A stretch of 30,248 bases of DNA from a virus. Shown here one piece after another: positions 5,076-27,730 of this stretch. Numbering within the stretch: position 1 is the first letter of the stretch; each line of letters opens with the position of its first letter. Below the pieces are notes generated by a model, which saw only the letters and a list, made by a program, of their open reading frames with translations, searched no databases and was not told the origin of the DNA. The translations under genes and the position numbers were made by a program. The stretch is taken from positions 1-30,248 of IMG/VR virus record IMGVR_UViG_3300030106_002014; one strand, given 5' to 3'.

Positions 5076-5899
5076 TGGCTGTTTTTTCACAAGGTAAATA
5101 TGCTTTAGCTATTTCTGATAGATCAGGCATGGCTTTTCCGTATAACGAAATGGTTAGAGAATGGAATGGTGCCCTGGTCCATGTTTCAGAATACGAGCCT
5201 AAGCAACCACAATTAGATCCTACACCTACAAGTGCAGACCCTCAAGCTTTACAAAGAGCAAGACCTGCAAGAACAGAATTTAATACACAAGATTTTTTAC
5301 CGTTTGATCCTTTTGAAACTGACTCAAGCACAACTTTAACAATTTCTTTTCCGTTTAGTAGATTAGAAGTTGATGATGTATTGAGGTTTGAAGGTGTTAA
5401 AGAATCTGTCGGAGGTGTTTCAATAGCCAACTTAGAATTACAAACAACTCTAAGTGCGAATATAACTAGCTCGGCAACAACTATATCTTTAACTGATGGG
5501 TCTAATTTTCCAAGTTCTGGATTTATCATGATACAAAAAGTTTTGACATCTGATGATACATCAAATCCTTTAGAAGTTGGAATGTTTCAAAATGAGATTA
5601 TTGAATACACAGGAAGATCTAGTAATGATTTAACTGGATGCACTCGTGGAACTTCTGCTAAATATAGAGGATACACACCACCGTCTACAACTGCGGGCAG
5701 CCATGATTCCGGGGCCAAAGTATTTGGTTCTTTCAAGGTTGCTTCTTTAGTAGAAACAAGTTATGTTAACGATGCTAACACTACGGTTACAGAAAAAAAT
5801 AGTTTTACTGTGACCCTACCAAGTGCAGCAACGAGTACAGTAACAAGAGGAGGAGGATTTAATTGCGTTGTTAGTCCTCTTAACGTAGAGAGTTTATAA
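5075..5899 (+). CDS. Virion protein with inserted repeat domain
   Basis: A 274-residue protein starting within the stop of the upstream gene (TAATG), so translation is probably coupled. The N-terminus (GKYALAISDRSGMAFPYNEM, REWNGALV, YEPKQPQLDP) resembles a conserved phage virion segment that, in relatives I recall, carries paired cysteines like a zinc ribbon; here the cysteine positions are Ser. Residues about 124-216 hold the inserted domain seen in the gp4-like and gp10-like proteins (TTISLTDGSNFPSSGFIMIQ, NEIIEYTG, LTGCTRG, AGSHDSGAKV), here with longer loops. The C-terminus is beta-rich. Likely a connector or tail component; exact role unknown. Confidence 0.55.
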   Translation: MAVFSQGKYALAISDRSGMAFPYNEMVREWNGALVHVSEYEPKQPQLDPTPTSADPQALQRARPARTEFNTQDFLPFDPFETDSSTTLTISFPFSRLEVDDVLRFEGVKESVGGVSIANLELQTTLSANITSSATTISLTDGSNFPSSGFIMIQKVLTSDDTSNPLEVGMFQNEIIEYTGRSSNDLTGCTRGTSAKYRGYTPPSTTAGSHDSGAKVFGSFKVASLVETSYVNDANTTVTEKNSFTVTLPSAATSTVTRGGGFNCVVSPLNVESL

Positions 5900-6642
5900 T
5901 GTCAGGATTAAGTGCATCAGGATTAAAAACACAGATTAGAAGCTACACAGAAGTAGACGATACAGTTTTAACGGACGCTGTATTAGAGAATATTATTTTA
6001 AACGCTCAACAAAGAATTATGATGGACCTGCCTATCGATGCAGATAGACATGTTCAAGAAGGTACTTTAGTTGCTAACGATAATACCATCAATGCACCTG
6101 CAGGATGTTTATTTATCAGAGGAATAGAAGTATTTAATTCAACAGCTAATACAGAAGGCAATGGATCTTGGTTAGAAAAGAAAGATCAATCTTATTTGTC
6201 TGAGTTTACTGATAGAAAATTTGGCCCTTCTGGCGAAATACAGGCCCCTACAGACACAACAAACTCTGTTACAGGGTTTCCTAAGTATTATGCTATGTTT
6301 GGAGGAGCTACGGGGCTTACAGACACTACTTCTGGAGGTATGTACTTTGCTCCTACACCAGATCAAAACTATAAATTTAGAGTATATTACAATAAAGTTC
6401 CTGTATTATTAGAAGGTACTAATACTAACTACATAAGTTTAAATTTTCCACAAGGTCTGCTATATTGCTGCTTGGCAGAAGCTTATGGATTTTTAAAAGG
6501 TCCAACAGATATGTTGACATTATATGAACAAAAGTATAGAAATGCAGTACAACAGTTTGCAGGAATGCAGATTGGTAGACGAAGAAGAGACGATTACACT
6601 GACGGAACTGTTAGAATTAAAGTCCCTTCCCCGTCACCGTAA
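5899..6642 (+). CDS. Probable head-tail connector / tail tubular A-like protein
   Basis: A 247-residue protein coupled to the upstream gene by TAATG. The N-terminal helices (LKTQIRSYTEVDDTVL, ENIILNAQQRIMMDLPIDAD) and C-terminal helical block (GLLYCCLAEAYGFLKGPTDM, YEQKYRNAVQQFAGMQIGRR) flank a central beta region with tryptophan and aromatic residues. This helix-beta-helix layout and size are typical of phage adaptor and tail tubular A-type gatekeepers that form a dodecameric ring below the portal. The very basic segment GRRRRDDY near the end may face DNA or a partner ring. Family assignment is by pattern and position between neck and tail genes. Confidence 0.55.
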   Translation: MSGLSASGLKTQIRSYTEVDDTVLTDAVLENIILNAQQRIMMDLPIDADRHVQEGTLVANDNTINAPAGCLFIRGIEVFNSTANTEGNGSWLEKKDQSYLSEFTDRKFGPSGEIQAPTDTTNSVTGFPKYYAMFGGATGLTDTTSGGMYFAPTPDQNYKFRVYYNKVPVLLEGTNTNYISLNFPQGLLYCCLAEAYGFLKGPTDMLTLYEQKYRNAVQQFAGMQIGRRRRDDYTDGTVRIKVPSPSP

Positions 6643-6657
6643 TAAGGAGAAAAAATT

Positions 6658-7098
6658 ATGGCAATAACATCGGCAATTTGTAATAGTTTCAAAAACGAGC
6701 TGTTGACAGCTACGCACAATTTTACAGCATCAACTGGTAACAGTTTTAAAATAGCTCTGTATACTAGTTCTGCAACTTTAGGTGCTAGTACAACGGCTTA
6801 CACAACTTCAAATGAAATCACAAATTCTTCAGGTAGCGCTTACACAGCCGCAGGAAAAGCTTTGACTAACATCACTCCATCTTTAGATGGATCAACAGCT
6901 TGTGTTGACTTTGATGACGTAAGTTTTACTTCAGCTTCTTTTACAGCTAACGGATGCTTGATCTACAATGATACAGCAACTGGAGATCCTGCAGTTTGTG
7001 CTGTTGCATTTGGTGGAGACAAAACAGTTTCTTCTGGAACTTTCACAATCCAATTCCCAGCTAAAGCAGCTACAACAGCTATAGTTAGAATAGCATAA
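6658..7098 (+). CDS. Conserved small tail/structural protein
   Basis: A 146-residue protein with AAGGAG ten bases upstream. It begins with a helix (AICNSFKNELLTATHNF) and then alternates strands: FKIALYTSSATLGASTTAY, VDFDDVSFTSASFTANGCLI, VAFGGDKTVSSGTFTIQFP, ending TAIVRIA. This pattern (FKIALYTSSATLG; ANGCLIYND) is very common in phages of many hosts directly upstream of tail-fibre genes and is usually annotated only as a structural protein. Its 3' end forms one arm of a hairpin that pairs with the start codon of the next gene. Function within the tail is unknown. Confidence 0.65.
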   Translation: MAITSAICNSFKNELLTATHNFTASTGNSFKIALYTSSATLGASTTAYTTSNEITNSSGSAYTAAGKALTNITPSLDGSTACVDFDDVSFTSASFTANGCLIYNDTATGDPAVCAVAFGGDKTVSSGTFTIQFPAKAATTAIVRIA

Positions 7099-7115
7099 GG
7101 AGGTAAATCCTTATG
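7094..7115 (+). promoter_or_regulatory. Hairpin pairing the start codon of the repeat protein gene
   Basis: Perfect 8-bp stem CATAAGGA (7094-7101) / TCCTTATG (7108-7115) with loop GGTAAA. The right arm contains the whole ATG (7113-7115) and the left arm contains part of the AGGAGG ribosome site and the upstream stop TAA (7096-7098). A ribosome finishing the upstream gene would melt it, so it should make translation of the downstream gene depend on the upstream one. Confidence 0.6.
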
Positions 7116-8132
7116 GCATCTATCTGGGGTGGAGATAGTCCTTCAGTAGCCTGGGGAGAAAACTCCTGGCAATCAAACACTGTTTCAATTTCTTTAACAG
7201 CACCGTCCGCATCAACAACTTCAGTTGGTTCTATAACAGCCTTTAACCAAAACGGTTGGGGTGGAGCTCAATGGGGTAATGATGGTTGGGGTGTAAACTA
7301 TTCTGTTGCTTTAACAGGTTTACAAGCAACATCTGCATTAGGAACACCGCTTGCTGAAGAATTTTTAGATGTTCCTTTAACTGCACCTACTGGTTTAACC
7401 TCTTCATTAGGATCTTTAACTTTAGATTTAACTTCATTTGCAGCTTTAACAGCACCAAGTCAAATGACTTCTGAAGTTGGAAGTTTTGATAATGCTGGAA
7501 CACTAGTCGGTTGGGGTAGAAATGGTTGGGGCGAAGAACCTTATGGAGATTCATTTAATAAACTAGTTCAACCTACAGGAATTAGCGCAACAGCAAGTGT
7601 TGGAGCGATAGCGCCTGCTGACGTGGTTGGATTAACGGGAGTATCATCGACAGCGAGTGTCGGATCTATTAATTTACAATTTACGTATTCTTTAGATGGA
7701 CAATCGGCTACAGCAAGTGTTGGATCTATCGTACCTGAAATAGGTGTTCCATTAACAGGAGTATCATCAACAGCAAGTGTCGGAGCAATTGTACCTGAGA
7801 TAGGTGTTCCATTAACAGGAGTGTCAGCAACTGCATCTATTGGTGACATAACCGTAACAGAAGTATTAATAGTTAGAATTGGTCAAGATGGTGTAGATAC
7901 ACCAGCTATTTTAACTTCTTCAGTTGGAGCTATTATTCCAGAAATAGGTGTACCAATAACAGGAATAGCAGCAACTTCAGCAGTGGGTGCAATAGCACCT
8001 GAAGACGTAATGGGATTAACAGGTTTAGAAGCAACTTCAGAAATAGGTACAGATGGCTTTGGAACCATAGCATATAAAGATATTGACATTACAGGTAATA
8101 CATCGTACACAGACATAAATCATGCTGCTTAA
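7113..8132 (+). CDS. Tail protein with twelve short beta repeats
   Basis: A 339-residue protein. The N-terminal third has Trp/Gly-rich motifs (SIWGGDSPSVAWGENSW, GWGGAQWGNDGWG, GWGRNGWGEEPYG). Around and after them is a tandem motif of the form L-T-G/A-x-x-(S/A)-T-(A/S)-x-(V/I/L)-G-x-(I/L), for which I count about twelve copies. Several are spaced 20 residues apart (PEIGVPLTGVSSTASVGAIV), others by 15-45 residues. Such Gly/Trp plus repeat proteins occur in tail-fibre regions of marine phages. A shaft or spacer in a tail fibre or spike is the likely role; beta folding is inferred from the strand/turn pattern. There are no cysteines. Its start is occluded by a hairpin. Confidence 0.6.
   Translation: MASIWGGDSPSVAWGENSWQSNTVSISLTAPSASTTSVGSITAFNQNGWGGAQWGNDGWGVNYSVALTGLQATSALGTPLAEEFLDVPLTAPTGLTSSLGSLTLDLTSFAALTAPSQMTSEVGSFDNAGTLVGWGRNGWGEEPYGDSFNKLVQPTGISATASVGAIAPADVVGLTGVSSTASVGSINLQFTYSLDGQSATASVGSIVPEIGVPLTGVSSTASVGAIVPEIGVPLTGVSATASIGDITVTEVLIVRIGQDGVDTPAILTSSVGAIIPEIGVPITGIAATSAVGAIAPEDVMGLTGLEATSEIGTDGFGTIAYKDIDITGNTSYTDINHAA
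7566..8050 (+). repeat. Coding tandem repeats in the tail protein gene
   Basis: Near-identical DNA units of 60 bases occur at about 7730 and 7790 (both starting GTACCTGA-ATAGGTGTTCC with one base changed), with related copies at about 7580, 7640, 7700, 7935 and 7995. The reading frame is kept through all copies. The high DNA identity of the two central units, against more diverged outer ones, points to recent expansion or gene-conversion-like exchange. Confidence 0.7.
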
Positions 8133-8152
8133 TTGATTAAGGAGAAAATAAT

Positions 8153-9445
8153 ATGGCATCAACATTTACAGCGCTTGGCGTAGAATTAATGGCAACCGGT
8201 GAAAATGCCGGAACTTGGGGAACTAAAACTAATACCAATTTAAATATTATTGAACAGATATCTGGTGGTTTTACACAGCAATCAATTGCTGGTGGTGCAC
8301 AAACAACTACTTTATCGGTATCTGATGGATCAACTGGTGCTACTCTTGCACACAGAATGATAGAATTCACTGGTTCAATCACAGGAAATCAGGTTGTAAC
8401 AATACCTTTAGACGTTCAAACATTTTATTTTTTAAGAAACTCAACTTCAGGTGCGTACACTGTACAGTTTAAATATGTATCTGGATCTGGAGATACCTTT
8501 ACTTTTTCAACTACAGACAAAGGTGATCAATTAATTTTTGCATCAGCTAACGATGGGACTAATCCTGATATAATTACTTTAAGCTTTGGTGATGTTACAT
8601 TAACAGGCACTGAAACCTTAACAAATAAAACTTTAACTTCACCGGCAATCGGAACATCTATTTTAGATACTAACGGAAACGAACTAGCTTTACTTACAGC
8701 TACAAGTTCAGCAGTAAACGAATTTACAATCGCAAACGCAGCAACAGGTAATGGACCTACTTTTTCATCTACTGGTGGGGACACAAATATTGATATTAAT
8801 ATAACGCCAAAAGGAACTGGAGACGTGGTTCTTGCAGGTGACACTGTAAAAGTTGGAGACTCAGGGGCAGCAGCTGTCCTAACTTCAAACGGTGCAGGAG
8901 CACTTACAGTAACAACTGGCGGTACAGAAAATTTAGTTTTAAGCACTAACAGCGGAACTAACTCAGGGACAGTTACTATTACAGACGCAGCTAATCAAAA
9001 CATTATAGCGGCACCTAACGGATATGGTAATTTTGAAATATCTGGCTTAGGTAAAATTGATGCTGTTATGGAAACAGCAACTATTGCTGCAACAGGAACT
9101 ACTGGAACAGTAAACTATGATGTTCTTACTCAAGCAGTTCTTTACCATACTTCAAACGCAGCAGGAAACTTTACAGTAAATTTTAGAGGCGACGGTTCAA
9201 ATACTTTAAACGTAATTATGGATACAGGAGAATCAGTTACGGCTGCATTCTTAGTAACCCAAGGTGGTACTGCTTACTACAATAACGCAGTTACAATTGA
9301 CGGATCAAGTATAACACCAGAATGGCAAGGTGGTTCAGCGCCTACTGGAGGAAATACTAACTCAGTTGACGTGTATCAGTACACAATTATCAAAACTGGG
9401 GACGCGTCGTTTACAGCGTTTGCGTCACAAACGCAGTTTGCGTAA
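8153..9445 (+). CDS. Tail fibre-like protein
   Basis: A 430-residue protein with AAGGAG before the ATG. The N-terminus (STFTALGVELMATGENAGTW, then GTKTNTNLNIIEQ) is the module I associate with fibre and spike proteins of marine phages and probably anchors it to the tail. The middle is T/S/G/N-rich with the common LTGTETLTNKTLTSPAIGTS and DTNIDINITPKGTGDVVLAG motifs, seen in many phage fibres before receptor-binding ends. The C-terminal about 130 residues (from KIDAVMETATIAATG) look like a different, more globular beta domain and may contact the receptor. No chaperone domain or catalytic motif is visible. Confidence 0.7.
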   Translation: MASTFTALGVELMATGENAGTWGTKTNTNLNIIEQISGGFTQQSIAGGAQTTTLSVSDGSTGATLAHRMIEFTGSITGNQVVTIPLDVQTFYFLRNSTSGAYTVQFKYVSGSGDTFTFSTTDKGDQLIFASANDGTNPDIITLSFGDVTLTGTETLTNKTLTSPAIGTSILDTNGNELALLTATSSAVNEFTIANAATGNGPTFSSTGGDTNIDINITPKGTGDVVLAGDTVKVGDSGAAAVLTSNGAGALTVTTGGTENLVLSTNSGTNSGTVTITDAANQNIIAAPNGYGNFEISGLGKIDAVMETATIAATGTTGTVNYDVLTQAVLYHTSNAAGNFTVNFRGDGSNTLNVIMDTGESVTAAFLVTQGGTAYYNNAVTIDGSSITPEWQGGSAPTGGNTNSVDVYQYTIIKTGDASFTAFASQTQFA

Positions 9446-9515
9446 GGGTAATTTCGGGTTATGGGATTCTTATTCCAAACTGGATTCAGAGGAGTTAAAA
9501 AGGAATAGAAATTAT

Positions 9516-9977
9516 ATGTTATACTGTGCAGCAAAAATAGATGAAAATAATGTAGTTACAGATACTATTGTTGTGGATGATACAAATATTAGAAACAATA
9601 ATGGAAATTTGGACGACGATATTTGTACAACTTTTTGCAATGAAATAAGACAGACAACTGGCAACTGGAAGTGGGCAGGAATGTATCAAGAAGATCAAGC
9701 TTACGTAAGAAAAATAGAACCTGGTATTGGAGACAATTGGGATCCAGGATCTAATAAATTTTATCAAAAAAAACCACATGCTTCGTGGGTTTTGGACTCT
9801 GATTTAAATTGGCAGCCACCGGTCCCTAGACCAAATAATACTACAAAATGGATTTGGAGTGAGGATACACAGGCATGGGAATTACCAGAACAACCATTTG
9901 AAGTAAGTACAAATTATTATGACGAGACTCCGGGAGATCCGGACAACGACAACTACATAGGGAGGGCAGAAGACTAA
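9516..9977 (+). CDS. Conserved tail-region protein, cyanophage-like family
   Basis: A 153-residue protein. I chose ATG 9516 (AAGGA at 9500-9504) because the longer open frame would overlap the fibre gene in a different frame and encode an R/K-rich, unlike-protein extension. Pattern: CAAKIDENNVVTDTIVVDD, GNWKWAGMYQ, RKIEPGIGDNWDPGSNKFY, KPHASWVLDSDLNWQPPVPR, TKWIWSEDTQAWE. This order of motifs matches a small protein common beside tail-fibre genes of marine T4-like and other phages, function unknown to me. The acidic C-terminus runs directly into the glycine-rich protein gene (1-base overlap), so the two are probably made together. Confidence 0.6.
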   Translation: MLYCAAKIDENNVVTDTIVVDDTNIRNNNGNLDDDICTTFCNEIRQTTGNWKWAGMYQEDQAYVRKIEPGIGDNWDPGSNKFYQKKPHASWVLDSDLNWQPPVPRPNNTTKWIWSEDTQAWELPEQPFEVSTNYYDETPGDPDNDNYIGRAED

Positions 9978-10852
9978 TGCCATTATTAGGATCAAGAGGT
10001 GCAGCAGCAGCAAGAGGCTTCGGTTTTGGAGGTGGAGCTGAAGATTTTATGGAAGCTACAGGTGGATCAGTAGCTACTTCAGGAAATTTTAAAATACACA
10101 CATTTACATCATCAGCTAACTTTGTAGTAGATGTAGAATACACAAATCCAAGTGAATACCCTGTTCAAGTTTTAATCGTAGCCGGCGGTGGCGGCGGTGG
10201 AGATGGCGGCGGAAACGGCGGCGCAGGTGGTGCTGGCGGGTATCTCGAAGGAACATTTACAAATTTAACAGCAGGTTCATATCCTGCTTCTATTGGAAAT
10301 GGCGGAAATACAAACAACAGTGGAAACGGTAGCGGTCAAGCTGGATCTAACTCTACATTCAACGGTGCAACTGCTAATGGCGGTGGATCCGGTGGCGGAG
10401 GTTCTCAGTCGGGAGGAGTAGGCGGAACAGGTGGCTCTGGCGGCGGAGGAGCTCGAGGTGGCGGCGGAAGTGCTAACCAAGGTAACTCTAACGGATTAAC
10501 TGGATACGGAAACAGCGGTGGCGCTGGTTCGCACAACACATGCTCAGGCGGTGGCGGCGGAGCAGGCTCTGGTGGTCAAGGTTCAAGTGGCGGAAACGGC
10601 GGTAACGGAAGATCGTGGCCTGGAAATTCTACAACTTACGCTGGAGGTGGCGGAGGCTCACGTCAATCAGGACCTGGTCCTGGAACCGGAGGAAACGGTG
10701 GCGGAGGCCCTGGTTCTCCTGGAATCGGTGGAACACCTGATAGTGGAACAAACGGATTAGGCGGTGGAGCAGGCGGTGCCTGTGACTCAGGCCCAGGTTC
10801 TACTGGTGGTTCTGGTGTAGTAATTGTTAAGTATCAATTCCAAGCAGGTTAA
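9977..10852 (+). CDS. Glycine-rich tail-tip / adhesin-like protein
   Basis: A 291-residue protein with runs of Gly over residues about 68-280. It begins, after a short linker, with the typical strand FKIHTFTSSANFVVDVEY and YPVQVLIVAGGGGGG and ends GGSGVVIVKYQF; these two edges define the widespread phage glycine-rich domain. Similar poly-Gly stretches form stacked polyglycine-II sandwiches in phage tail-tip adhesins such as the Salmonella phage S16 gp38; similarity here is by composition only. It contains two Cys (near CSGGGG and ACDSG) and short GPGPG and SPGIG stretches. It is the last gene before the oxygenase array, which makes it a candidate target. Codons use GGC/GGT/GGA heavily, making a GC-rich island. 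Confidence 0.7.
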   Translation: MPLLGSRGAAAARGFGFGGGAEDFMEATGGSVATSGNFKIHTFTSSANFVVDVEYTNPSEYPVQVLIVAGGGGGGDGGGNGGAGGAGGYLEGTFTNLTAGSYPASIGNGGNTNNSGNGSGQAGSNSTFNGATANGGGSGGGGSQSGGVGGTGGSGGGGARGGGGSANQGNSNGLTGYGNSGGAGSHNTCSGGGGGAGSGGQGSSGGNGGNGRSWPGNSTTYAGGGGGSRQSGPGPGTGGNGGGGPGSPGIGGTPDSGTNGLGGGAGGACDSGPGSTGGSGVVIVKYQFQAG

Positions 10853-10889
10853 TATTGCATCTCATAGCTCTTTCTGGTAGAAGGGGCGT

Positions 10890-11678
10890 ATGAAAGACAA
10901 AAAGTATTTTAGCATTAATGTCGTTGATGAATTTTTCGAAGACCCTAAAAAGGTTGTAAACTTTGCAAACACTTTAAAGTTTAAAGAAGGTCCATATGGT
11001 CGTTGGCCAGGTGTAAGATCAGATGCATTACATGAAGTAGACTATAAGTTTTTTATCTCTGTTTTATCTAAAATATTTTCTTTGTCTTTTGACTACAAGC
11101 ATCACAATGTAAATTGGGATAACGTAGAAATGTATTTTCAAAAAACATATCCGTATGATGATAAAAATAAAGATAGTATTGTTAATAAAGGTCTTGTTCA
11201 TGCAGATGGAGATTATCCTTTAGTTGGTTTAATATATCTAACAGAGGGTGCTGATATTGAATCAGGTACTTCTATAGTAGAACCAATAAAAAAATACACA
11301 GAAGCACAAGCTAAAAAAGAATCAGATGTATTTACCAAAAGAAAGATTAAGTTTTATAAAAAATTAAAAGATGAAGTAACTAAAAAAGATTTAGATAATT
11401 ATGGTAAATTAGTTAAGGACTGTAATTCTAAGTTTTATGAAAAATTAAAGGTTAATAATATTTTTAACAGAGCTTTGTTGTATAACGGAAACGACTACCA
11501 TAAAGCTAATTCTTTTTTTACAGGAAAAAAAGAAAGACTAACATTAGTGTTCTTTGTTAAAAACGTACAGTCTACAGGGTTTTTTCCCTTACAGAGACTA
11601 GACGCTAATGCAACTATTTTAGATTATGATAGCAATAAAAAAGAAAGCTATAAAAAAACAAACAATACAAAACATTGA
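10890..11678 (+). CDS. 2OG-Fe(II) oxygenase-like protein, array member 1
   Basis: A 262-residue protein starting the oxygenase series, with AGAAGGGG before the ATG. It has the jelly-roll iron site pattern: H104-x-D106 (GLVHADGDYPLVGLIYL), distal H204 (NGNDYHKANSF) and R216 (GKKERLTLVFFV) as candidate 2-oxoglutarate anchor. A lysine-rich helical insertion (about residues 133-190) separates the two halves. The overall look is close to the DUF6445-type oxygenase-like family. It probably hydroxylates an unknown substrate using O2, Fe(II) and 2-oxoglutarate in the host cytoplasm. Its last 53 bases overlap the next gene in another frame. No sign of decay. Confidence 0.7.
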   Translation: MKDKKYFSINVVDEFFEDPKKVVNFANTLKFKEGPYGRWPGVRSDALHEVDYKFFISVLSKIFSLSFDYKHHNVNWDNVEMYFQKTYPYDDKNKDSIVNKGLVHADGDYPLVGLIYLTEGADIESGTSIVEPIKKYTEAQAKKESDVFTKRKIKFYKKLKDEVTKKDLDNYGKLVKDCNSKFYEKLKVNNIFNRALLYNGNDYHKANSFFTGKKERLTLVFFVKNVQSTGFFPLQRLDANATILDYDSNKKESYKKTNNTKH

Positions 11679-12171
11679 AGATATAGTATCTTCTTCTTTG
11701 TTTTATTGGAATCTCTACGAAGAAACTAGAGAAGGTAATGTAGCACTAAATAAAAAATATAAAACTGAGGATACACATCAATTAGTGCATCCTGTTTTTA
11801 AAGTAAACCAACAAAAAACTAGCCCTTATTATCCTGCTTTTTTAAATCTGTTTCAAGAAATAATTAATAGCACAGTAAAAAGAGATGTCATATTACTGAG
11901 GATGAAAGTTAATTTATTATTTAAATCAAACAAAAAAATAATAAACCCTTTTCATATTGATGATAAGTTAGACAAAAATTATTTTTCAATGATATACTAT
12001 GTAAATAACTCTGATGGAGATACTGTAATATATGATAATAAAAAACTAGTTAGAGTTAAACCCGAAGCAGGAAAGATTTTAATGTTTGATGGATCGTTAT
12101 ACCATGCTTCTAGTAGACCAACTAAAAATAAACTTAGAAAGGTAGTAAATATAAATTTTAAATATGCTTAA
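11626..12171 (+). CDS. 2OG-Fe(II) oxygenase-like protein, array member 2
   Basis: A 181-residue protein. Iron site: H110-x-D112 (NPFHIDDKLDKN), strand FSMIYYVNNSDGDT, then GKILMFDGSLYH with H160 and R171 (KLRKVVNINF). The order HxD, IYYVN, G-x-hydrophobic-F-DG-x-x-x-H and R is classic for P4H/cyanophage-type 2OG dioxygenases. I chose ATG 11626, giving a 53-base overlap with member 1, because no later ATG precedes the conserved N-terminal helix; both frames are lysine-rich there. The substrate is unknown. Its stop overlaps the next start by 8 bases. Confidence 0.78.
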   Translation: MIAIKKKAIKKQTIQNIEDIVSSSLFYWNLYEETREGNVALNKKYKTEDTHQLVHPVFKVNQQKTSPYYPAFLNLFQEIINSTVKRDVILLRMKVNLLFKSNKKIINPFHIDDKLDKNYFSMIYYVNNSDGDTVIYDNKKLVRVKPEAGKILMFDGSLYHASSRPTKNKLRKVVNINFKYA

Positions 12172-12778
12172 ATTAGACTCAGGTTTACCCGAACTAGAAA
12201 TTAATTCTTGGTTTCCAACATTAATAGGTGTTAGTTTTTATAAGAACCATAACAAAGAAGCGCCAGGTATTATAAAACACTTAGACTCACAAAAAAAGTA
12301 TTGTAGTAAATCCATAGGACAATCTAGTTTTTATTTACACAGTTGCCACAAAGATAAAAAATTAAAAAATTTAAATAAATGGATACAAGATAGAGTTAAT
12401 GACTATACAAAATTTAATGGTTTTCCAAAAAAATGTAAACCCGTTGAGTCATGGTTTCATTGGTATAAAGAAAATAATTTAGCTGATGCACACGTTCATT
12501 TGGGTAGAACTATATCCACTATATATTATTTGCAAAGTGACCCAGATGATTCAAGAGTAATATTTCATTCACCTCTTCCGGTGGACATGGCTAATCCTTT
12601 TGACACTACAGCTAATGATAGTAAAGAAAGACACAAAAAAGATCATACGCACACAGAGTGTTTTTATAAACCTATTGAAGGAATGCTGTTAATATTCAGG
12701 TCTTATTTATGGCACAAAGTAGAGTTAAAAAATAACAAATTAAAAGATAGAATTATAATTAGTTGGGATTTAAAATAA
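12164..12778 (+). CDS. 2OG-Fe(II) oxygenase-like protein (TIGR02466 type), array member 3
   Basis: A 204-residue protein. It starts LEINSWFPTLIGVSFY, typical of the putative 2OG-Fe(II) oxygenases grouped as TIGR02466. Candidate metal residues are H110-x-H112 (ADAHVHLGRTISTIYYL) in place of the usual HxD, then distal H184 (RSYLWHKVEL) and R196 (DRIIISWDL). A His/Asp-rich insertion (residues about 140-168, with KERHKKDHTHTE) might give extra metal binding. The short gap to the next gene is a 1-base TAATG overlap. Enzymatic activity is inferred from the fold pattern only. Confidence 0.7.
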   Translation: MLKLDSGLPELEINSWFPTLIGVSFYKNHNKEAPGIIKHLDSQKKYCSKSIGQSSFYLHSCHKDKKLKNLNKWIQDRVNDYTKFNGFPKKCKPVESWFHWYKENNLADAHVHLGRTISTIYYLQSDPDDSRVIFHSPLPVDMANPFDTTANDSKERHKKDHTHTECFYKPIEGMLLIFRSYLWHKVELKNNKLKDRIIISWDLK

Positions 12779-13365
12779 TGTTTGTTAGGACATCATATTG
12801 GTATTTTAAGAATGCAGTAGATAATTTTTTTATTAACTCTTTAAATGAAGCCGTTAAAAAACAAGAAACTATACGAGGCAAGATAGACGGCAAAAAAGTT
12901 GACAGTAAAAGACGCGAGTCTGATGTTAAGTTTATATCTGAGCAATGGATCTACGATGCATTACTACCATATATAAGAACAGCCAATCAATCTGCAAAAT
13001 GGAATTATGATTTTGATTATTGTGAGGCGGCTCAATACACTATTTATAAAAAGGGCCAACACTATGGTTGGCATACAGATATGGCTGATGATCCTTATGA
13101 CACAGAGGATATAAGTTTTAAAGGTAAGGTTAGAAAATTAAGTTGCACATTATTATTAAACGACACTAAGGAATATAAAGGTGGAAGTTTTGAATTTGAT
13201 CTTAGAAATACAAGAGACAAAGAAAACATTGTCAAAGTAAAAGAACTTGAAAACAAGGGGGATCTAATAGTTTTCCCATCTCATCTTTGGCACAGAGTAA
13301 AACCTGTTACTTCTGGCAAAAGATTAAGTCTAGTAGTTTGGTTTATAGGGCCACCATTTAAATGA
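12778..13365 (+). CDS. 2OG-Fe(II) oxygenase, PKHD/PiuC-like, array member 4
   Basis: The clearest member: 195 residues with GQHYGWHTDM (H99, D101), LSCTLLLNDTKEYKGGSFEF and DLIVFPSHLWHRVKPVTSGK (H172, then R182) followed by RLSLVVWFIGP. This matches the PKHD-type hydroxylase pattern (PiuC-like, prolyl 4-hydroxylase superfamily). I chose ATG 12778, which overlaps the upstream stop as TAATG, over an in-frame TTG at 12763 that would extend into the previous gene. It should be catalytically competent by its residues. Typical relatives hydroxylate Pro or related residues or small molecules; the substrate here is unknown. Confidence 0.88.
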   Translation: MFVRTSYWYFKNAVDNFFINSLNEAVKKQETIRGKIDGKKVDSKRRESDVKFISEQWIYDALLPYIRTANQSAKWNYDFDYCEAAQYTIYKKGQHYGWHTDMADDPYDTEDISFKGKVRKLSCTLLLNDTKEYKGGSFEFDLRNTRDKENIVKVKELENKGDLIVFPSHLWHRVKPVTSGKRLSLVVWFIGPPFK

Positions 13366-13961
13366 GTTTTAAAAAACAAAAATATTTAGTTATTAAAAAT
13401 GCTGTGCCCAGGATGATAGCAGACTACTCTTATCATTATCTGTTATTAAAAAGATCTGTTTTTTATAAGATGGATACTTTAAAACATTTTGGGGATTATG
13501 GTGACCCCATGGTGCCAAATAGTTATTGTCATTACGCCGACATATTAATGGAAACATTATTAGTTGAGATGCTTCCTTTGATGAAGAAAAAAACTAAACT
13601 TGATTTAATACCTACTTACACTTATTGTAGGATTTATAAAAAAGGTGATGAATTAAAAAGACATAAAGATAGACCAAGTTGTGCGGTATCAACAACTTTA
13701 AATCTAGGTGGTGATCCGTGGCCTATATATTTAGAACCTTCTGGTAAGAAGAACATGAAAGGAATTAAGATAGATTTAAAACCAGGTGATATGTTAATCT
13801 ATGATGGTTGTGCATTAGAGCATTGGAGAAAACCTTTTAAAGGAAGAACATGTGCTCAGGTTTTTTTACATTACAATACATCGAACGATGAAAAAAATAA
13901 ATTTGATAGTAGACCAATGTTAGGACTACCTTTGGAGTTTCAAAATGCCAAGACCAAGTAA
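13362..13961 (+). CDS. 2OG-Fe(II) oxygenase, prolyl-hydroxylase-like, array member 5
   Basis: A 199-residue protein beginning KYLVIKNAVPRMIADY, a typical N-terminal helix of phage 2OG hydroxylases. Catalytic pattern: TYCRIYKKGDELKRHKDRPS with H101-x-D103, then TTLNLGGDPWPIYLEP, then GDMLIYDGCALEHWRKPF with H154, then R162 (GRTCAQVFLHY). These are all residues needed for Fe(II) and 2-oxoglutarate binding. It resembles prolyl 4-hydroxylase-like proteins of marine cyanophages and algal viruses. It starts in an ATGA overlap with member 4 (4 bases) and overlaps member 6 by 17 bases. Confidence 0.85.
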   Translation: MSFKKQKYLVIKNAVPRMIADYSYHYLLLKRSVFYKMDTLKHFGDYGDPMVPNSYCHYADILMETLLVEMLPLMKKKTKLDLIPTYTYCRIYKKGDELKRHKDRPSCAVSTTLNLGGDPWPIYLEPSGKKNMKGIKIDLKPGDMLIYDGCALEHWRKPFKGRTCAQVFLHYNTSNDEKNKFDSRPMLGLPLEFQNAKTK

Positions 13962-14607
13962 ACCTAGAAATCTAGCAAATAAACCAAAACATAAACATGA
14001 ACCTCTAGAAGCTCATGTTGGTCCTCACTTTATGGTTGCAACATTTAGAGGGCAGTACAAAGGGATATCTGACGAACTAGATATTAGAAACACGGACTAT
14101 TATAAAAAGAAAGGTGGTCAAACAATTAACTTACATAAAGATCCATACTTTAAAGACTTAATTAAAAAAATAAAAATATCTGTACTTTATGTTGCAGAGC
14201 ATTGGTACAAAGTTATTCCTGGGTACAAAGTAGACGTTGTTTCCCTATGGGTCAATTCAAATGAAAAAGGTATGAACCACCCACCCCATAATCATATGAA
14301 TACTTTTTTAAGTGGTACACTATTTTTAGATGGTGATGGCACAGACTATCCACCTATAAAATTTATAAGACCCTATCCTCAACCAAACCTACCTATTATT
14401 AAACAGTATAATCAAATTAATAGTAATGTATGTCATTTCGCTTGTGTGAAAGATAACTTTATAATATTTCCTTCATACTTTTTTCATTACGTAGACACCA
14501 ATCAAAATAAAAAACCCCGTATATCTATTTCTTTTGATACAGTATTACGCGGTAAGTACGGTGAGATAACTAATCAAGGTGAGACTGTGGGACAGTTTAA
14601 ACTTTAA
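13945..14607 (+). CDS. 2OG-Fe(II) oxygenase-like protein (TIGR02466 type), array member 6
   Basis: A 220-residue protein. After a basic, probably unstructured N-terminus (residues 1-20) it has VDVVSLWVNSNEKGMNHPPH followed by NHMNTFLSGTLFL, giving H112, H115 and H117 as the iron-site region, then FIIFPSYFFHYV with H181 and R192 (KKPRISISFD). The order is that of 2OG-FeII_Oxy_5/TIGR02466 proteins, in which H-x-H precedes the SG-x-x-Y/F-L strand. It starts 17 bases inside member 5 and joins member 7 by a 1-base TAATG overlap. Substrate unknown. Confidence 0.75.
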   Translation: MPRPSKPRNLANKPKHKHEPLEAHVGPHFMVATFRGQYKGISDELDIRNTDYYKKKGGQTINLHKDPYFKDLIKKIKISVLYVAEHWYKVIPGYKVDVVSLWVNSNEKGMNHPPHNHMNTFLSGTLFLDGDGTDYPPIKFIRPYPQPNLPIIKQYNQINSNVCHFACVKDNFIIFPSYFFHYVDTNQNKKPRISISFDTVLRGKYGEITNQGETVGQFKL

Positions 14608-15110
14608 TGTGGATACATACTTTTAAAAAACACCCTGAGATAAAAGAACATCTTTTAAAATTAATTTCTAACATACCACCAACACGTGTTGAAGAAGCGG
14701 GTGATACTATAAACCACTCTGATTTCTATTTACCTAAAAGTTTTGAAAGAGAATACCTAGAGTATTTTTATCATAACCTTAAAGATCACATGGCTATGTT
14801 ATGTGACTTATTTAAATCTAGGACTTGGAGTATAAAATCTGGATGGTTTCAACAGTATATAAAAGGCGATTCTCATAACTACCATAATCACGGAGAGTCT
14901 CAGTTTGCAGGAGTATATTATCTAGAGCTTCCTAACAAGTCTATGACTACTGAGTTTTTAGATGGCACTAGTGTAGATGCTAAAGAGGGGGATATTATTA
15001 TATTTCCTTCCTATAAATATCACCGGTCTAAAAAGAATACTTCCAAAAAGCGTAAAACTGTGATAGCTTTCAACTGTTCCTTTGATGTTTGGAACGGTAA
15101 TAAGGGCTAG
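14607..15110 (+). CDS. 2OG-Fe(II) oxygenase-like protein (TIGR02466 type), array member 7
   Basis: A 167-residue protein, the shortest in the series but with a complete core: GWFQQYIKGDSHNYHNHGES with H90, H93 and H95, strand QFAGVYYLELPN, then EGDIIIFPSYKYHRSKK with H139, and R149 in the basic run before TVIAFNCSFD. Same subfamily as members 3 and 6 and as the - strand gene at 27206-27730, but the sequences are clearly diverged rather than recent duplicates. It is the last array gene; the next ORF (gp10-like) follows after 34 bases. Confidence 0.75.
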   Translation: MWIHTFKKHPEIKEHLLKLISNIPPTRVEEAGDTINHSDFYLPKSFEREYLEYFYHNLKDHMAMLCDLFKSRTWSIKSGWFQQYIKGDSHNYHNHGESQFAGVYYLELPNKSMTTEFLDGTSVDAKEGDIIIFPSYKYHRSKKNTSKKRKTVIAFNCSFDVWNGNKG

Positions 15111-15144
15111 ATTTTAAGTAAATCTCAATATATAACCAATTATT

Positions 15145-17322
15145 ATGCTACAAAAACTAGGTTTTTTACCAGGATTCAATAAACAAGTTACTGAGACCGG
15201 GGCCGAGGGTCAATGGTTTGATGGTGACAATGTTCGTTTTAGATATGGCACACCAGAAAAGATAGGTGGCTGGGAGCAGTTAGGTGAGAATAAACTAACA
15301 GGAGCGGCAAGAGCCATCCACCAATTTGAGAATAATAACAGTCTTAAGTATTCTGCCATAGGCACAAACAAAATTTTATACGTTTATGCAGGTGGTCAAT
15401 TTTACGATATTCATCCTATTAGAGCCACATTAACTGGAGCTAATTTTACCAGCACAGCTTCATCAACAACCGTTACTGTAACATGTTCTAGTGACCACGG
15501 ATTATTAGAAGATGATATTGTTTTATTCGATAGCGTAACAGGGTTGAGTGGATCTACATTTACCAATGCAACTTTTGAAGATGTAAAATTTATGGTTGCC
15601 TCAATTCCTAGTTCAACCACTTTTACTATTACAATGGCCACAGCAGAAGCAGGAACTCCTGTAACTAACGGAGGATCTGCATCAGTGCTTTGTTATTATA
15701 GTGTGGGTCCATCGCAACAACTTGGTGGATTTGGATGGGGAGCAGGTAACTGGAGCGGTCAAACCAGCGGAGCAGCAACTACCACTCTTGCTTCGGCGTT
15801 AACGAATACCACTGACACAACTGTTGTATTAACAAGCAGTTCAGCTTTTCCAGCATCTGGAGAAATTAGAATTGGTACTGAGGATATAAGTTATACATCA
15901 AACAACACGGCTACAAATACTTTGAGCGGAGGAGCCAGAGGTGTCAACGGAACAACCGCAGCAACACACAGCTCAAGTGTTACAGTCACAAATATTTCTG
16001 ACTTTGTTGCATGGGGAGAAGCTTCAACAGCGCAAGATTTTACTATTGATCCTGGACTATGGGTTTTAGATAACTTTGGTCAAAAACTAATAGCACTTAT
16101 TTATAATGGTCCTTGTTTTGAATGGGACGGAGCTCCAACAAATGCTGTTAACGTTAGAGCAACTTTATTACCAAATGCTCCAACTGCATCAAGACATATG
16201 TTGGTATCTACACCAGATAGACACTTAGTGTTTTTTGGAACAGAGACACAGGTGGCTGCGAGTCAGACACAGGACGATATGTTTATTAGATTCTCTGATC
16301 AAGAAAGTATTGATCAAACAAATTCTTATACTGTAACTGCAAACAATACTGCGGGTACACAAAGACTGGCCGATGGATCAAGGATCATGGGAGCGATTAA
16401 AGGTAGAGACGCTATCTATGTTTGGACCGACACAGCTTTATTCTTAATGAAGTTTGTAGGCGCACCTTTTACTTTTGCATTTGAACAGATAGGCACAAAC
16501 TGTGGACTGATTGGTAAGAATGCATGCGTTGAAATAGATGGTGTAGCTTATTGGATGTCAGAGAATGGTTTCTTTACTTATGATGGACAATTAAAATCAT
16601 TACCTTGTTTGGTAGAAGATTTTGTATATGACGATATTAATACTGTAGGAAGAGATCTTATTAATGCAGGATTAAATAATTTGTTTGGAGAAATCAATTG
16701 GTTCTACGCTTCAGCAAACTCTAACATAGTAGATAAAGTTGTAACTTATAATTATTTAGATTCTACAGGTAAAAGACCTATCTGGACAACCGGAACATTG
16801 GCTAGAACAGCGTGGGTAGACTCTGCTTTATTTGGTAAACCACATGCAACTTTTTATGATTCATCTAGCAATAGTTCTTATGATGTTGTCGGTAACACTG
16901 ACGGCTGCACAATATACTATGAACACGAAACAGGGACCGATCAAGTTAACGCTGGTGGTGCTGTTACAGCTTTGATAGCAAATATATCTTCAGGAGACTT
17001 TGATATTACACAAAGAAGTCAACGAGGACAGAGCGTAGGAATGCCTGACTTAAGAGGAGATGGAGAGTTTATAATGAGAATTAGTAGGTTTATACCTGAT
17101 TTTATAGATCAGACAGGAACAACAGCAATTAAATTTAAGACAAGAATTTACCCAAATAGCACACAAGTTACAAATAGTTTTAATTGTACTTCCTCTACGA
17201 CTAAAAAAGATGTAAGAGTAAGGGCTAGACAAATTGCATTAGAAGTTGCAAACACGGGCGCTAATGAAGACTGGAAATTAGGGACGTTTAGATTAGACAT
17301 ACATCCAGGAGGTAGAAGGTAA
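15145..17322 (+). CDS. P22 gp10-like tail / DNA-stabilisation protein
   Basis: A 725-residue protein. The N-terminus (LGFLPGFNKQVTETGAEGQW, DGDNVRFRYGTPEKIGGWEQ) is a pattern I associate with large phage tail-tube or P22 gp10-like hub/stabilisation proteins in marine phages; gp10 sits below the gp4 adaptor ring. Beta-propeller-like repeats are hinted by HMLVSTPDRHLVFFG, RDAIYVWTDTALFLMKFVG and GVAYWMSENGFFTYDG. It carries two inserted beta domains: residues about 95-185, and residues about 213-282, which match the insert in the gp4-like protein (SGEIRIGTEDISYTS, ARGVNGTTAATH). It overlaps the next gene by one base. Placed after the oxygenase array rather than beside gp4. Confidence 0.65.
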   Translation: MLQKLGFLPGFNKQVTETGAEGQWFDGDNVRFRYGTPEKIGGWEQLGENKLTGAARAIHQFENNNSLKYSAIGTNKILYVYAGGQFYDIHPIRATLTGANFTSTASSTTVTVTCSSDHGLLEDDIVLFDSVTGLSGSTFTNATFEDVKFMVASIPSSTTFTITMATAEAGTPVTNGGSASVLCYYSVGPSQQLGGFGWGAGNWSGQTSGAATTTLASALTNTTDTTVVLTSSSAFPASGEIRIGTEDISYTSNNTATNTLSGGARGVNGTTAATHSSSVTVTNISDFVAWGEASTAQDFTIDPGLWVLDNFGQKLIALIYNGPCFEWDGAPTNAVNVRATLLPNAPTASRHMLVSTPDRHLVFFGTETQVAASQTQDDMFIRFSDQESIDQTNSYTVTANNTAGTQRLADGSRIMGAIKGRDAIYVWTDTALFLMKFVGAPFTFAFEQIGTNCGLIGKNACVEIDGVAYWMSENGFFTYDGQLKSLPCLVEDFVYDDINTVGRDLINAGLNNLFGEINWFYASANSNIVDKVVTYNYLDSTGKRPIWTTGTLARTAWVDSALFGKPHATFYDSSSNSSYDVVGNTDGCTIYYEHETGTDQVNAGGAVTALIANISSGDFDITQRSQRGQSVGMPDLRGDGEFIMRISRFIPDFIDQTGTTAIKFKTRIYPNSTQVTNSFNCTSSTTKKDVRVRARQIALEVANTGANEDWKLGTFRLDIHPGGRR

Positions 17323-26746: not shown

Positions 26747-27222
26747 TGAATTTGAGTCGTAACTTCAGCTTGTTAGAGCTGACTAAATCAGACACAGCTA
26801 TCAGGCGCGGCATTGACAATGAACCCAACGCTGATCAAGTAGACAAATTAAAAGAGTTGTGTGAAAATATTTTACAACCCGTTCGGGACCACTTCGGCAG
26901 AGTTAAGGTGACCAGCGGATTTCGTTCACCAGAATTATGTGCTGCAATTGGCAGCTCTGCAAATTCACAGCACGCCAAAGCCGAGGCCGCAGACTTCGAA
27001 TGTCCTGGAGTTGACAACGCTGAGCTTGCTGACTGGATACATAGAGAACTTCCTTATGATCAACTTATCTGCGAGTTCTACACTCCCGGAGAACCCAACT
27101 CGGGATGGATTCATTGCAGTTACATACCTGAAGGTAGACGCGCATCATATCTATGGGCGTATAAGTCTGAGGGAAAAACTAAATACAAGCCTGTATTAGG
27201 ATCAGCTAAAGACCTAATTTAA
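26746..27222 (+). CDS. M15-type peptidase endolysin
   Basis: A 158-residue, single-domain enzyme of normal length for M15_3-type phage peptidases. Zinc motif SQHAKAEAADFE with H76 and D83, and distal WIHCSY with H123; conserved VTSGFRSPELCAAIGSS before it. It should cleave the L-Ala-D-Glu or D-Ala cross-link class of bonds in peptidoglycan during lysis. No signal peptide, so export would depend on the upstream membrane protein or another holin. Its 3' end overlaps the - strand oxygenase gene by 17 bases. Confidence 0.82.
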   Translation: MNLSRNFSLLELTKSDTAIRRGIDNEPNADQVDKLKELCENILQPVRDHFGRVKVTSGFRSPELCAAIGSSANSQHAKAEAADFECPGVDNAELADWIHRELPYDQLICEFYTPGEPNSGWIHCSYIPEGRRASYLWAYKSEGKTKYKPVLGSAKDLI

Positions 27223-27730
27223 AATCAAAAGATATAATTCTTTTTTTAAACTTAAGTAAGTTAGGTTCTGTATAGTGATATAAAAATTGTGGTATGATAA
27301 CAATGTCACCCTCATTTACTGACGGTCTAAACAATCTAGACTTATCATTATCATCATTCCATGGTTGGATATAGGTAGTAGGAGGAGAATCTTTGTGCAT
27401 ATCTAAGTATAGGATACCACAATAACCTCTAGAGCCATGATTGTGGGGGGCATGATAGTCTCCTTTTTTATAAGTAACTGACCACGCACCATACAGATCT
27501 ATAAAATCATCATGCTTTCTTCTAACTATTTTAAGTTCGTCTTTAAAAATTTCTTTAAACTCTTTACAAAAACCATCTTTAAATCTGCTAGTAGAAAAGT
27601 TTTGTTGTCTTACCTCTGGATATTTTTTTAAAACTTTTTTAATTTTTTCTTTTTTATTTTTAAAATCAGAACACTCAATCTTTAAAAAATCTATTTTAAA
27701 AATAGGTTCTACGTAAAATTTTATATCCAT
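27206..27730 (-). CDS. 2OG-Fe(II) oxygenase-like protein (TIGR02466 type), eighth copy
   Basis: A 174-residue protein on the opposite strand with the same core as array members 3, 6 and 7: YKKGDYHAPHNHGSRGYCGI with H93, H96 and H98, strand ILYLDMHKD, then EGDIVIIPQFLYHYTEP with H152, and R164 (KKRIISFDF). It lies downstream of, and overlaps by 10 bases, the helicase gene, so the two are probably co-transcribed from the promoter near 29.2 kb. It is remote from the array by position and strand, so its timing probably differs. Converges with, and overlaps by 17 bases, the endolysin gene. Substrate unknown. Confidence 0.75.
   Translation of the reverse strand: MDIKFYVEPIFKIDFLKIECSDFKNKKEKIKKVLKKYPEVRQQNFSTSRFKDGFCKEFKEIFKDELKIVRRKHDDFIDLYGAWSVTYKKGDYHAPHNHGSRGYCGILYLDMHKDSPPTTYIQPWNDDNDKSRLFRPSVNEGDIVIIPQFLYHYTEPNLLKFKKRIISFDFKLGL

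What the first reader, a model, noticed from the sequence alone, without database searches (positions are those of the whole stretch)
10890..15110. Seven consecutive, mutually divergent 2OG-Fe(II) oxygenase-like genes inside a phage tail region
All seven ORFs in a row carry the iron-site and arginine pattern of 2-oxoglutarate oxygenases and are joined by overlaps of 53, 8, 1, 4, 17 and 1 bases. The proteins differ in length (167-262 aa), in subfamily and in sequence, so this is not a recent tandem duplication. Single or paired 2OG oxygenases are common in marine phages; seven in one series looks like an assembled enzyme set, for example stepwise modification of one target or parallel modification of many. 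This is the strongest candidate for an undescribed system.
Basis: partly seen in the sequence, partly recalled or inferred. Interest (0 to 1): 0.88.

Follow-up and report, generated by a model that had tools for sequence, protein, structure and literature searches.

The report
Seven-oxygenase cassette swapped with phage adhesin
This ocean virus of bacteria carries seven different iron-dependent oxygen-inserting enzymes in a row, and the whole row is traded between distantly related viruses together with the virus's glycine-rich attachment protein, which suggests the enzymes chemically finish that protein or its target, although no substrate has been shown.

Summary
In detail: seven consecutive overlapping ORFs (10890-15110) are divergent double-stranded beta-helix iron oxygenases. 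Correction: O3, O6 and O7 (PF13759) have HxH..H, not HxD..H, and O5 lacks the usual distal Arg. O5's family is annotated 'ferrochelatase' in many phages, but its model (pLDDT 95) matches prolyl hydroxylases.

The run is neither unique nor an assembly artefact. The same genes in the same order occur in five other contigs (one lacking O7), at 55-96% protein identity, although the adjacent core gene is only 39-54% identical. A reciprocal relative (core 91% identical) has an unrelated array at that place. The exchanged unit is about 6.1 kb: the end of a fibre gene, a small protein (TFA), a glycine-rich adhesin (GR) and the seven oxygenases. Across 51 modules the oxygenase set tracks TFA and GR, not the adjacent core gene. 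Such arrays (2-11 genes, sometimes with halogenase, carbamoyltransferase or sulfotransferase) occur in pelagiphages and cyanophages.

Best reading: a tailoring set cognate to an exchangeable adhesin, probably modifying it after translation. Module linkage is shown; the substrate is inferred. Multi-copy phage 2OG oxygenases are published; I found no published description of the adhesin-linked cassette. New variant of a known kind.

The parts
10890..11678 (+). O1: DUF6445-like 2OG oxygenase, 262 aa; H104xD106, H204, R216 invariant
   Evidence: model pLDDT 82, Foldseek top PHD2 1.4e-5
11626..12171 (+). O2: FlmC/phrog_274-like 2OG oxygenase, 181 aa; H110xD112, H160, R171
12164..12778 (+). O3: PF13759/TIGR02466 oxygenase, 204 aa; H110xH112, H184, R196 (three-His site)
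12778..13365 (+). O4: PF13640, PiuC/PKHD-like 2OG oxygenase, 195 aa from ATG; H99xD101, H172, R182
13362..13961 (+). O5: 2OG oxygenase of the family mis-named 'ferrochelatase' (phrog_2954), 199 aa; H101xD103, H154 invariant
13945..14607 (+). O6: PF13759 oxygenase, 220 aa; H115xH117, H181
14607..15110 (+). O7: PF13759-like oxygenase, 167 aa; H93xH95, H139
9977..10852 (+). GR: glycine-rich adhesin/fibre protein (PF21722, phrog_2295), 37% Gly; co-varies with the array; candidate substrate
9516..9977 (+). TFA: small fibre-associated protein (phrog_7759); co-varies most strongly with the array; function unknown
9068..9445 (+). C-terminal domain (about 125 aa, phrog_5906) of fibre gene 8153-9445; left edge of the exchanged unit lies at its start
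9068..15110 (+). Exchangeable cassette: fibre C-terminus, TFA, GR and O1-O7
   Evidence: reciprocal homology blocks in L005 and L421-L426; gene order
15145..17322 (+). P22 gp10-like DNA stabilization protein (STAB), core gene bordering the cassette; not part of it
27206..27730 (-). Eighth PF13759 oxygenase, outside the cassette, beside a helicase gene

Best explanation
The seven oxygenases are the tailoring half of an exchangeable adsorption cassette in HTVC023P-type pelagiphages and relatives. They are probably made late with the fibre genes, use Fe(II), O2 and (for the HxD members at least) 2-oxoglutarate, and hydroxylate or otherwise oxidise side chains of the co-encoded glycine-rich adhesin (GR) and/or its small partner (TFA). 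Each enzyme would act on its own residue or motif, so an adhesin type needs its matching enzyme set and the two travel together. In some relatives halogenase, carbamoyltransferase or sulfotransferase genes extend the chemistry. Shown: enzyme folds or motifs, order-conserved cassette, co-variation with TFA and GR, en-bloc exchange between divergent phages. Inferred: late expression, enzymatic activity, that the substrate is the adhesin, and that the result alters adsorption.
For: Identical order TFA-GR-O1..O7 in L421, L422 (with two extra oxygenases), L423 (one extra) and L426, and in L425 without O7; proteins 55-96% identical while STAB is 39-54% where present. The reciprocal relative L005 shares the backbone on both sides (77-86% DNA; STAB 91% aa) but has an unrelated array. 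In 51 modules, oxygenase-set similarity tracks TFA (partial rho 0.40, p=0.0005) and GR (0.28, p=0.0005) but not adjacent STAB (-0.08). The last oxygenase, a median 71 bp from STAB, tracks TFA (0.35) and not STAB (-0.09). GR/TFA lie upstream in 27 of 29 O5-seeded loci with 4 kb of sequence there. The same neighbours occur on other backbones: HTVC033P, HTVC008M, P-RSM4, S-SSM5, S-CAM8. Closest solved folds of O5 and O1 are protein-acting prolyl hydroxylases, among others. O3 and O7 versus L017: dN 0.13 and 0.26 against dS 1.34 and 1.09, i.e. purifying selection.
Against: No substrate, activity or expression data. En-bloc transfer alone could give the co-variation without any chemical coupling. 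Gly-Pro context in GR shows no collagen-like P-G enrichment (observed 329, expected 374). GR residues do not clearly differ with halogenase presence. The fibre C-terminal domain, also inside the unit, does not track the oxygenase set. In HTVC008M many PF13759-type genes are scattered genome-wide (16 phrog_81 matches), so not all act on this adhesin. Many GR/TFA pairs in other phages have no oxygenases. About 1 in 5 arrays with full context had no recognised fibre gene within three genes (10 of 52).
Confidence: 0.5

Rival explanations
1. The enzymes modify the host surface (polysaccharide, lipid or receptor protein) that the linked adhesin recognises, for example to stop re-adsorption or superinfection. 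The array would match the adhesin because both match one receptor.
For: Co-variation with the adhesin is equally expected. Carbamoyl- and sulfotransferases in sister arrays often act on sugars (established knowledge). Sugar-acting 2OG enzymes (HygX, EvdO1) are also among O5's structural neighbours. PMC7824862 proposes capsule decoration for a jumbo-cyanophage cluster.
Against: No glycan-building genes in this cassette. Position among virion genes suggests late expression, after which surface remodelling has little time. Aromatic halogenases do not fit sugars.
Confidence: 0.2
2. Auxiliary metabolism: the oxygenases draw down 2-oxoglutarate or otherwise reprogram host N/C metabolism or iron use, as proposed for cyanophages.
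For: Proposed in PMC3037559; iron and 2OG links discussed in PMC12753301 and PMC9599517.
Against: Does not explain seven non-orthologous enzymes with invariant order, nor tracking of an adhesin rather than the core genome, nor near-absence elsewhere in the group (0.06 per 10 kb). The 'ferrochelatase partner' used to link iron is itself a 2OG oxygenase.
Confidence: 0.08
3. The array makes or decorates a small secondary metabolite (halogenated, hydroxylated).
For: PMC7824862 proposes this for a cyanophage cluster with halogenase, carbamoyltransferases and 2OG enzymes; such enzymes occur in sister arrays here.
Against: No scaffold-building enzyme in the window cassette, and most arrays lack halogenase, carbamoyl- and sulfotransferase. 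The constant partners are an adhesin and TFA.
Confidence: 0.08
4. The cassette is a passive hitch-hiker: a recombination hot spot between conserved fibre and STAB sequences exchanges whatever lies between, with no functional tie between adhesin and enzymes.
For: Both edges lie at conserved sequence (fibre C-terminus and STAB start). En-bloc swaps produce co-variation by themselves.
Against: Gene content is overwhelmingly one enzyme superfamily, order is kept over 40% protein divergence, genes show purifying selection, and the adhesin-oxygenase neighbourhood recurs on unrelated backbones with other flanks, even with the array between GR and TFA or on the opposite strand.
Confidence: 0.1
5. DNA repair or DNA base modification (AlkB/TET-like).
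For: Older proposal for cyanophage 2OG genes near uvsX/Y/W (cited in PMC9146016); some PHROG names say 'endonuclease'.
Against: No AlkB or TET/JBP family hit was listed for any of the seven (a weak 2OG-FeII_Oxy_2 match of O4, E 0.08, is below its cut-off); they sit in a fibre cassette, not in the replication region.
Confidence: 0.03

Closest known systems
2OG-Fe(II) oxygenase clusters of HTVC023P-type pelagiphages (PMC9599517)
   Same: Same phage group; several non-orthologous 2OG oxygenases co-located, next to genes named 'ferrochelatase'.
   Different: That paper calls them not adjacent, treats 'ferrochelatase' as a heme-type partner and judged phylogeny unsuitable. Here seven are adjacent and overlapping, the 'ferrochelatase' is a 2OG oxygenase, and the unit includes an adhesin and moves as a cassette.
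Cyanophage Syn9 gp40-gp60 region and other cyanomyovirus arrays (NC_008296, P-RSM4, S-SSM5, S-CAM8)
   Same: Runs of the same families (O1-, O2-, O4-, O5-, O6-like) next to glycine-rich fibre genes, with halogenase or carbamoyltransferase.
   Different: Different backbone (T4-like), different gene order; many members annotated as minor coat protein, endonuclease V, ferrochelatase.
Jumbo cyanophage S-SSM6a ten-gene cluster (PMC7824862)
   Same: 2OG enzymes with halogenase and carbamoyltransferase, as in sister arrays.
   Different: Contains methylases and HAD phosphatases and was read as a secondary-metabolite or capsule system; this cassette has only oxygenases plus adhesin genes.
Bacterial and viral prolyl-4-hydroxylases (P. 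putida P4H on EF-Tu, PHD2, PBCV-1 vCPH)
   Same: Fold and HxD..H site of O5 and O1.
   Different: 12-18% identity; substrate unknown; O3, O6 and O7 have HxH..H.
PF13759/TIGR02466 proteins of known structure (3bvc, 2rg4)
   Same: Family of O3, O6, O7; HxH motif also in 3bvc.
   Different: Those are uncharacterised chromosomal proteins.
Exchangeable tail-fibre/chaperone cassettes of phages (from general knowledge, not tested)
   Same: Receptor-binding module swapped as a block.
   Different: Here the block carries seven enzymes.

Membership tests
2OG-Fe(II) oxygenase superfamily | Double-stranded beta-helix fold | tested here: met
   O5: pLDDT 95, Z 17.5 to SnoN, 17.2 to P4H, Foldseek E 1.5e-8; O1: Foldseek 1.4e-5 to PHD2. 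O2, O3, O4, O6, O7 only by sequence profile.
2OG-Fe(II) oxygenase superfamily | HxD/E...H facial triad | tested here: inconclusive
   Met in O1, O2, O4, O5; O3, O6 and O7 have HxH...H instead, fixed in 91/91 and 81/81 relatives of O3 and O6.
2OG-Fe(II) oxygenase superfamily | Basic residue anchoring the 2OG carboxylate after the distal His | tested here: inconclusive
   O1 R216, O2 R171 (56/60), O3 R196 (88/91), O4 R/K182, O6 R192 (56/81), O7 K/R150; O5 has no conserved Arg there (R90 and R156 are invariant).
2OG-Fe(II) oxygenase superfamily | Fe(II)- and 2OG-dependent turnover | not testable with these tools
   Needs purified enzyme.
Ferrochelatase (annotation of the O5 family) | Ferrochelatase profile or fold | tested here: not met
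   No Pfam hit at E<=1 and no PDB sequence relative; the whole chain aligns with 2OG oxygenases instead.
HTVC023P-type pelagiphage (host group) | Homologous structural backbone | tested here: met
   STAB 44-46% identical to HTVC023P, HTVC027P and 023Pt_psg01; similar gene order. The record is a 30 kb fragment; the host itself is inferred.
Adhesin-modifying PTM system | Enzymes co-encoded and co-inherited with the substrate | tested here: met
   (for GR and TFA as candidate substrates).
Adhesin-modifying PTM system | Modified residues on the adhesin | not testable with these tools
   Needs virion mass spectrometry.

The most novel reading that the evidence does not exclude
Marine phages carry a combinatorial post-translational modification system for their receptor-binding proteins: swappable sets of up to about eleven oxygenases, plus halogenases, carbamoyl- and sulfotransferases, install a set-specific pattern of modified residues on a glycine-rich adhesin, giving chemical diversity of the adsorption surface that the adhesin gene alone does not encode.
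Probability: 0.35. Interest if true: 0.88.

Novelty: new variant of a known kind. Interest (0 to 1): 0.64.

Why it matters
2OG oxygenases are among the commonest auxiliary genes of marine phages and no function has been tested; one survey says so outright (PMC9602691). Published ideas are DNA repair, 2OG draw-down, iron use, secondary metabolites. The linkage found here gives a sharp, testable candidate substrate: the adjacent adhesin. [quoted passage not shown] It would also give a physiological setting for phage halogenases such as VirX1 of Syn10 (PMC8407142). The mis-annotation of 2OG enzymes as ferrochelatase, endonuclease V and minor coat protein hides how long these runs are.

Tried and rejected
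Recent tandem duplication: rejected, self-BLAST about 25% at best. Mis-assembly: rejected, same order in five other contigs. Ferrochelatase function of O5: rejected. Collagen-like target: array-linked GR proteins are richer in Pro (cluster medians 6.1% vs 3.3%, p=0.012, only 5 clusters in the low group), but P-G is not enriched, so no specific hydroxylation motif is claimed. Halogenase versus aromatic content of GR: no clear signal (W p=0.13, Y p=0.07). Fibre C-terminal domain as co-varying partner: no signal. Structural relative of TFA: none by sequence in the PDB. Meaning of 'FlmC': no paper found. Transcription class of the HTVC027P array: not stated in the main text. A search for literature linking phage 2OG enzymes to fibre modification found none in the held library.
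Full report
Observation. The seven ORFs and their overlaps are exactly as described. O4 most likely starts at ATG 12778, which gives the reported one-base overlap with O3. The window is a complete IMG/VR record of 30,248 bases. Its DNA stabilization protein (15145-17322) is 44-46% identical to those of Pelagibacter phages HTVC023P and HTVC027P and of phage 023Pt_psg01, so it belongs to or near the HTVC023P-type pelagiphages.

Identity of each protein. Pfam, NCBIfam and PHROG profiles give PF13640 for O4 and weakly for O2, PF13759 for O3, O6 and O7, DUF6445 for O1 and only phrog_2954 for O5. Profile-profile comparison links O1-O2, O2-O3/O6/O7 and O4-O7 at 96-98% probability; O5 stands apart. 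I therefore folded O5 from 30 relatives: pLDDT 95, and the closest solved structures are P. putida prolyl-4-hydroxylase, PHD2, SnoN, HygX and EvdO1. O1 (pLDDT 82) is closest to PHD2. Active sites: O1, O2, O4 and O5 have conserved HxD...H; O3 and O6 have HxH...H without exception in 91 and 81 sequences, and O7 has it in most. The same HxH is visible in the solved but uncharacterised relative 3bvc. So a three-histidine site is likely for three of the seven, and 2OG use by these is not assured.

Mis-annotation. The O5 family is found in 154 phage records and is widely labelled ferrochelatase. PMC9599517 built a 'ferrochelatase partner' idea on this label. The fold and the motif show it is another 2OG oxygenase. 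In cyanophage Syn9 members of this run are called minor coat protein, endonuclease V and ferrochelatase; profile hits show an uninterrupted run of eight oxygenases there.

The array is a recurrent feature. In contigs fetched around the stabilization gene, the space between fibre genes and that gene holds 0-10 oxygenases. Over all loci there are 108 distinct arrays with two to eleven members, 19 of them with seven or more. Some also hold a flavin halogenase (PF04820, E 1e-107), a carbamoyltransferase (PF16861, E 1e-43) or a sulfotransferase (PF13469, E 2e-11). A family related to the oxygenases but without the His motif (CL3) is also a regular member. Oxygenase density is 5.13 per 10 kb in O5-seeded loci and 0.06 per 10 kb around a helicase of the same phage group.

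Cassette. A search with O1 found six contigs. In L421 the order TFA, GR, O1 to O7 is identical, with protein identities of 78-96%, but the next gene, STAB, is only about 50% identical. L422, L423 and L426 keep all seven (L422 with two extra oxygenases, L423 with one); L425 lacks O7; L424 is cut short. At DNA level the shared block begins at 9065-9071 in four contigs, at the start of the C-terminal phrog_5906 domain of the fibre gene, and ends at 15094-15282 in the contigs that keep O7. Reciprocally, L005 shares the backbone from 4614 to 9028 and again from 15128 on (STAB 91% identical), but between them only a 50-base match; its four oxygenases and halogenase are different genes. L017 (STAB 89%, GR 73%) keeps O3, O4, O6 and O7. 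This is a cassette exchange and it rules out mis-assembly.

Co-variation. In 51 modules with TFA, array and STAB, oxygenase-set similarity follows TFA (partial Spearman 0.40, Mantel p=0.0005) and GR (0.28, p=0.0005), and not STAB (-0.08). The oxygenase nearest STAB (median 71 bp) follows TFA as well as the oxygenase nearest TFA does (0.35 and 0.34), and neither follows STAB. O5 sequences alone follow TFA at 0.48. The whole fibre gene and its C-terminal domain do not co-vary. The GR/TFA neighbourhood is also found beside arrays in HTVC033P, in the T4-like pelagiphage HTVC008M (array on the opposite strand) and in cyanophages P-RSM4, S-SSM5 and S-CAM8, where two oxygenases and a carbamoyltransferase lie between GR and TFA. 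GR/TFA pairs without oxygenases also exist, so the enzymes are optional partners.

Mechanism. From this I infer that the array is cognate to the adhesin. The simplest chemical reading is post-translational oxidation of GR and/or TFA, with one enzyme per motif. The structural neighbours of O5 and O1 include protein prolyl hydroxylases, but also sugar- and metabolite-acting enzymes, so the fold does not decide the substrate. A search for collagen-like P-G motifs in GR was negative. Modification of the receptor that the adhesin recognises predicts the same co-variation and is the main rival. Purely passive linkage is less likely, because the content is one superfamily, the order is kept and selection is purifying, but co-variation alone does not exclude it.

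Relation to the literature. Multi-copy 2OG oxygenases in marine phages are well known (PMC3037559, PMC9602691, PMC9599517). PMC7824862 describes a jumbo-cyanophage cluster with halogenase, carbamoyltransferase and 2OG enzymes and reads it as secondary metabolism or capsule decoration. PMC12774648 notes widespread EGLN3-like phage proteins. I found no paper in the held library that ties these arrays to an adhesin cassette or shows a substrate; subscription papers and preprints are not covered. VirX1, the halogenase of Syn10, has a large open active site and broad acceptance of unnatural substrates (PMC8407142).

Verdict. The feature is real, heritable and widespread. The enzyme kinds are known; the adhesin-linked cassette behaviour is the new part. 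Interest 0.64.

Noticed in passing
window 27206-27730 (-): Eighth PF13759 oxygenase outside the cassette, overlapping the 3' end of the helicase gene 27721-29154.
   Followed up: partly
phages collection, 154 records, phrog_2954: 'Ferrochelatase' label on a 2OG oxygenase family; likewise 'endonuclease V' (phrog_274, O2) and 'minor coat protein' (phrog_1644, O1).
   Followed up: yes
L047:5154-5669, L010, L082:4823-5326, L084:3536-4039 and others (CL3): Conserved array member related to 2OG oxygenases at profile level but without the metal histidines: a probable pseudo-oxygenase. L198:7667-8188 still has HDH..H.
   Followed up: partly
L036:5725-8722, L004-L006 and L013 8414-9661, L055:573-1376: Flavin halogenase, carbamoyltransferase and sulfotransferase genes inside sister oxygenase arrays.
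   Followed up: partly
HTVC008M (KC465899): 16 phrog_81 matches scattered over the 147 kb genome, so in this phage most such genes are not in the adhesin island.
   Followed up: no
L051:5195-5578 family (CL0, about 105-127 aa): Small uncharacterised protein often located at the end of arrays.
   Followed up: no
window about 7375-8035: Internal repeats in the structural gene 7113-8132, seen as multiple offset BLAST matches to L017 and L005.
   Followed up: no
window 4131-5899: Two structural ORFs match the stabilization-protein profile (E about 1e-20), perhaps a shared domain.
   Followed up: no
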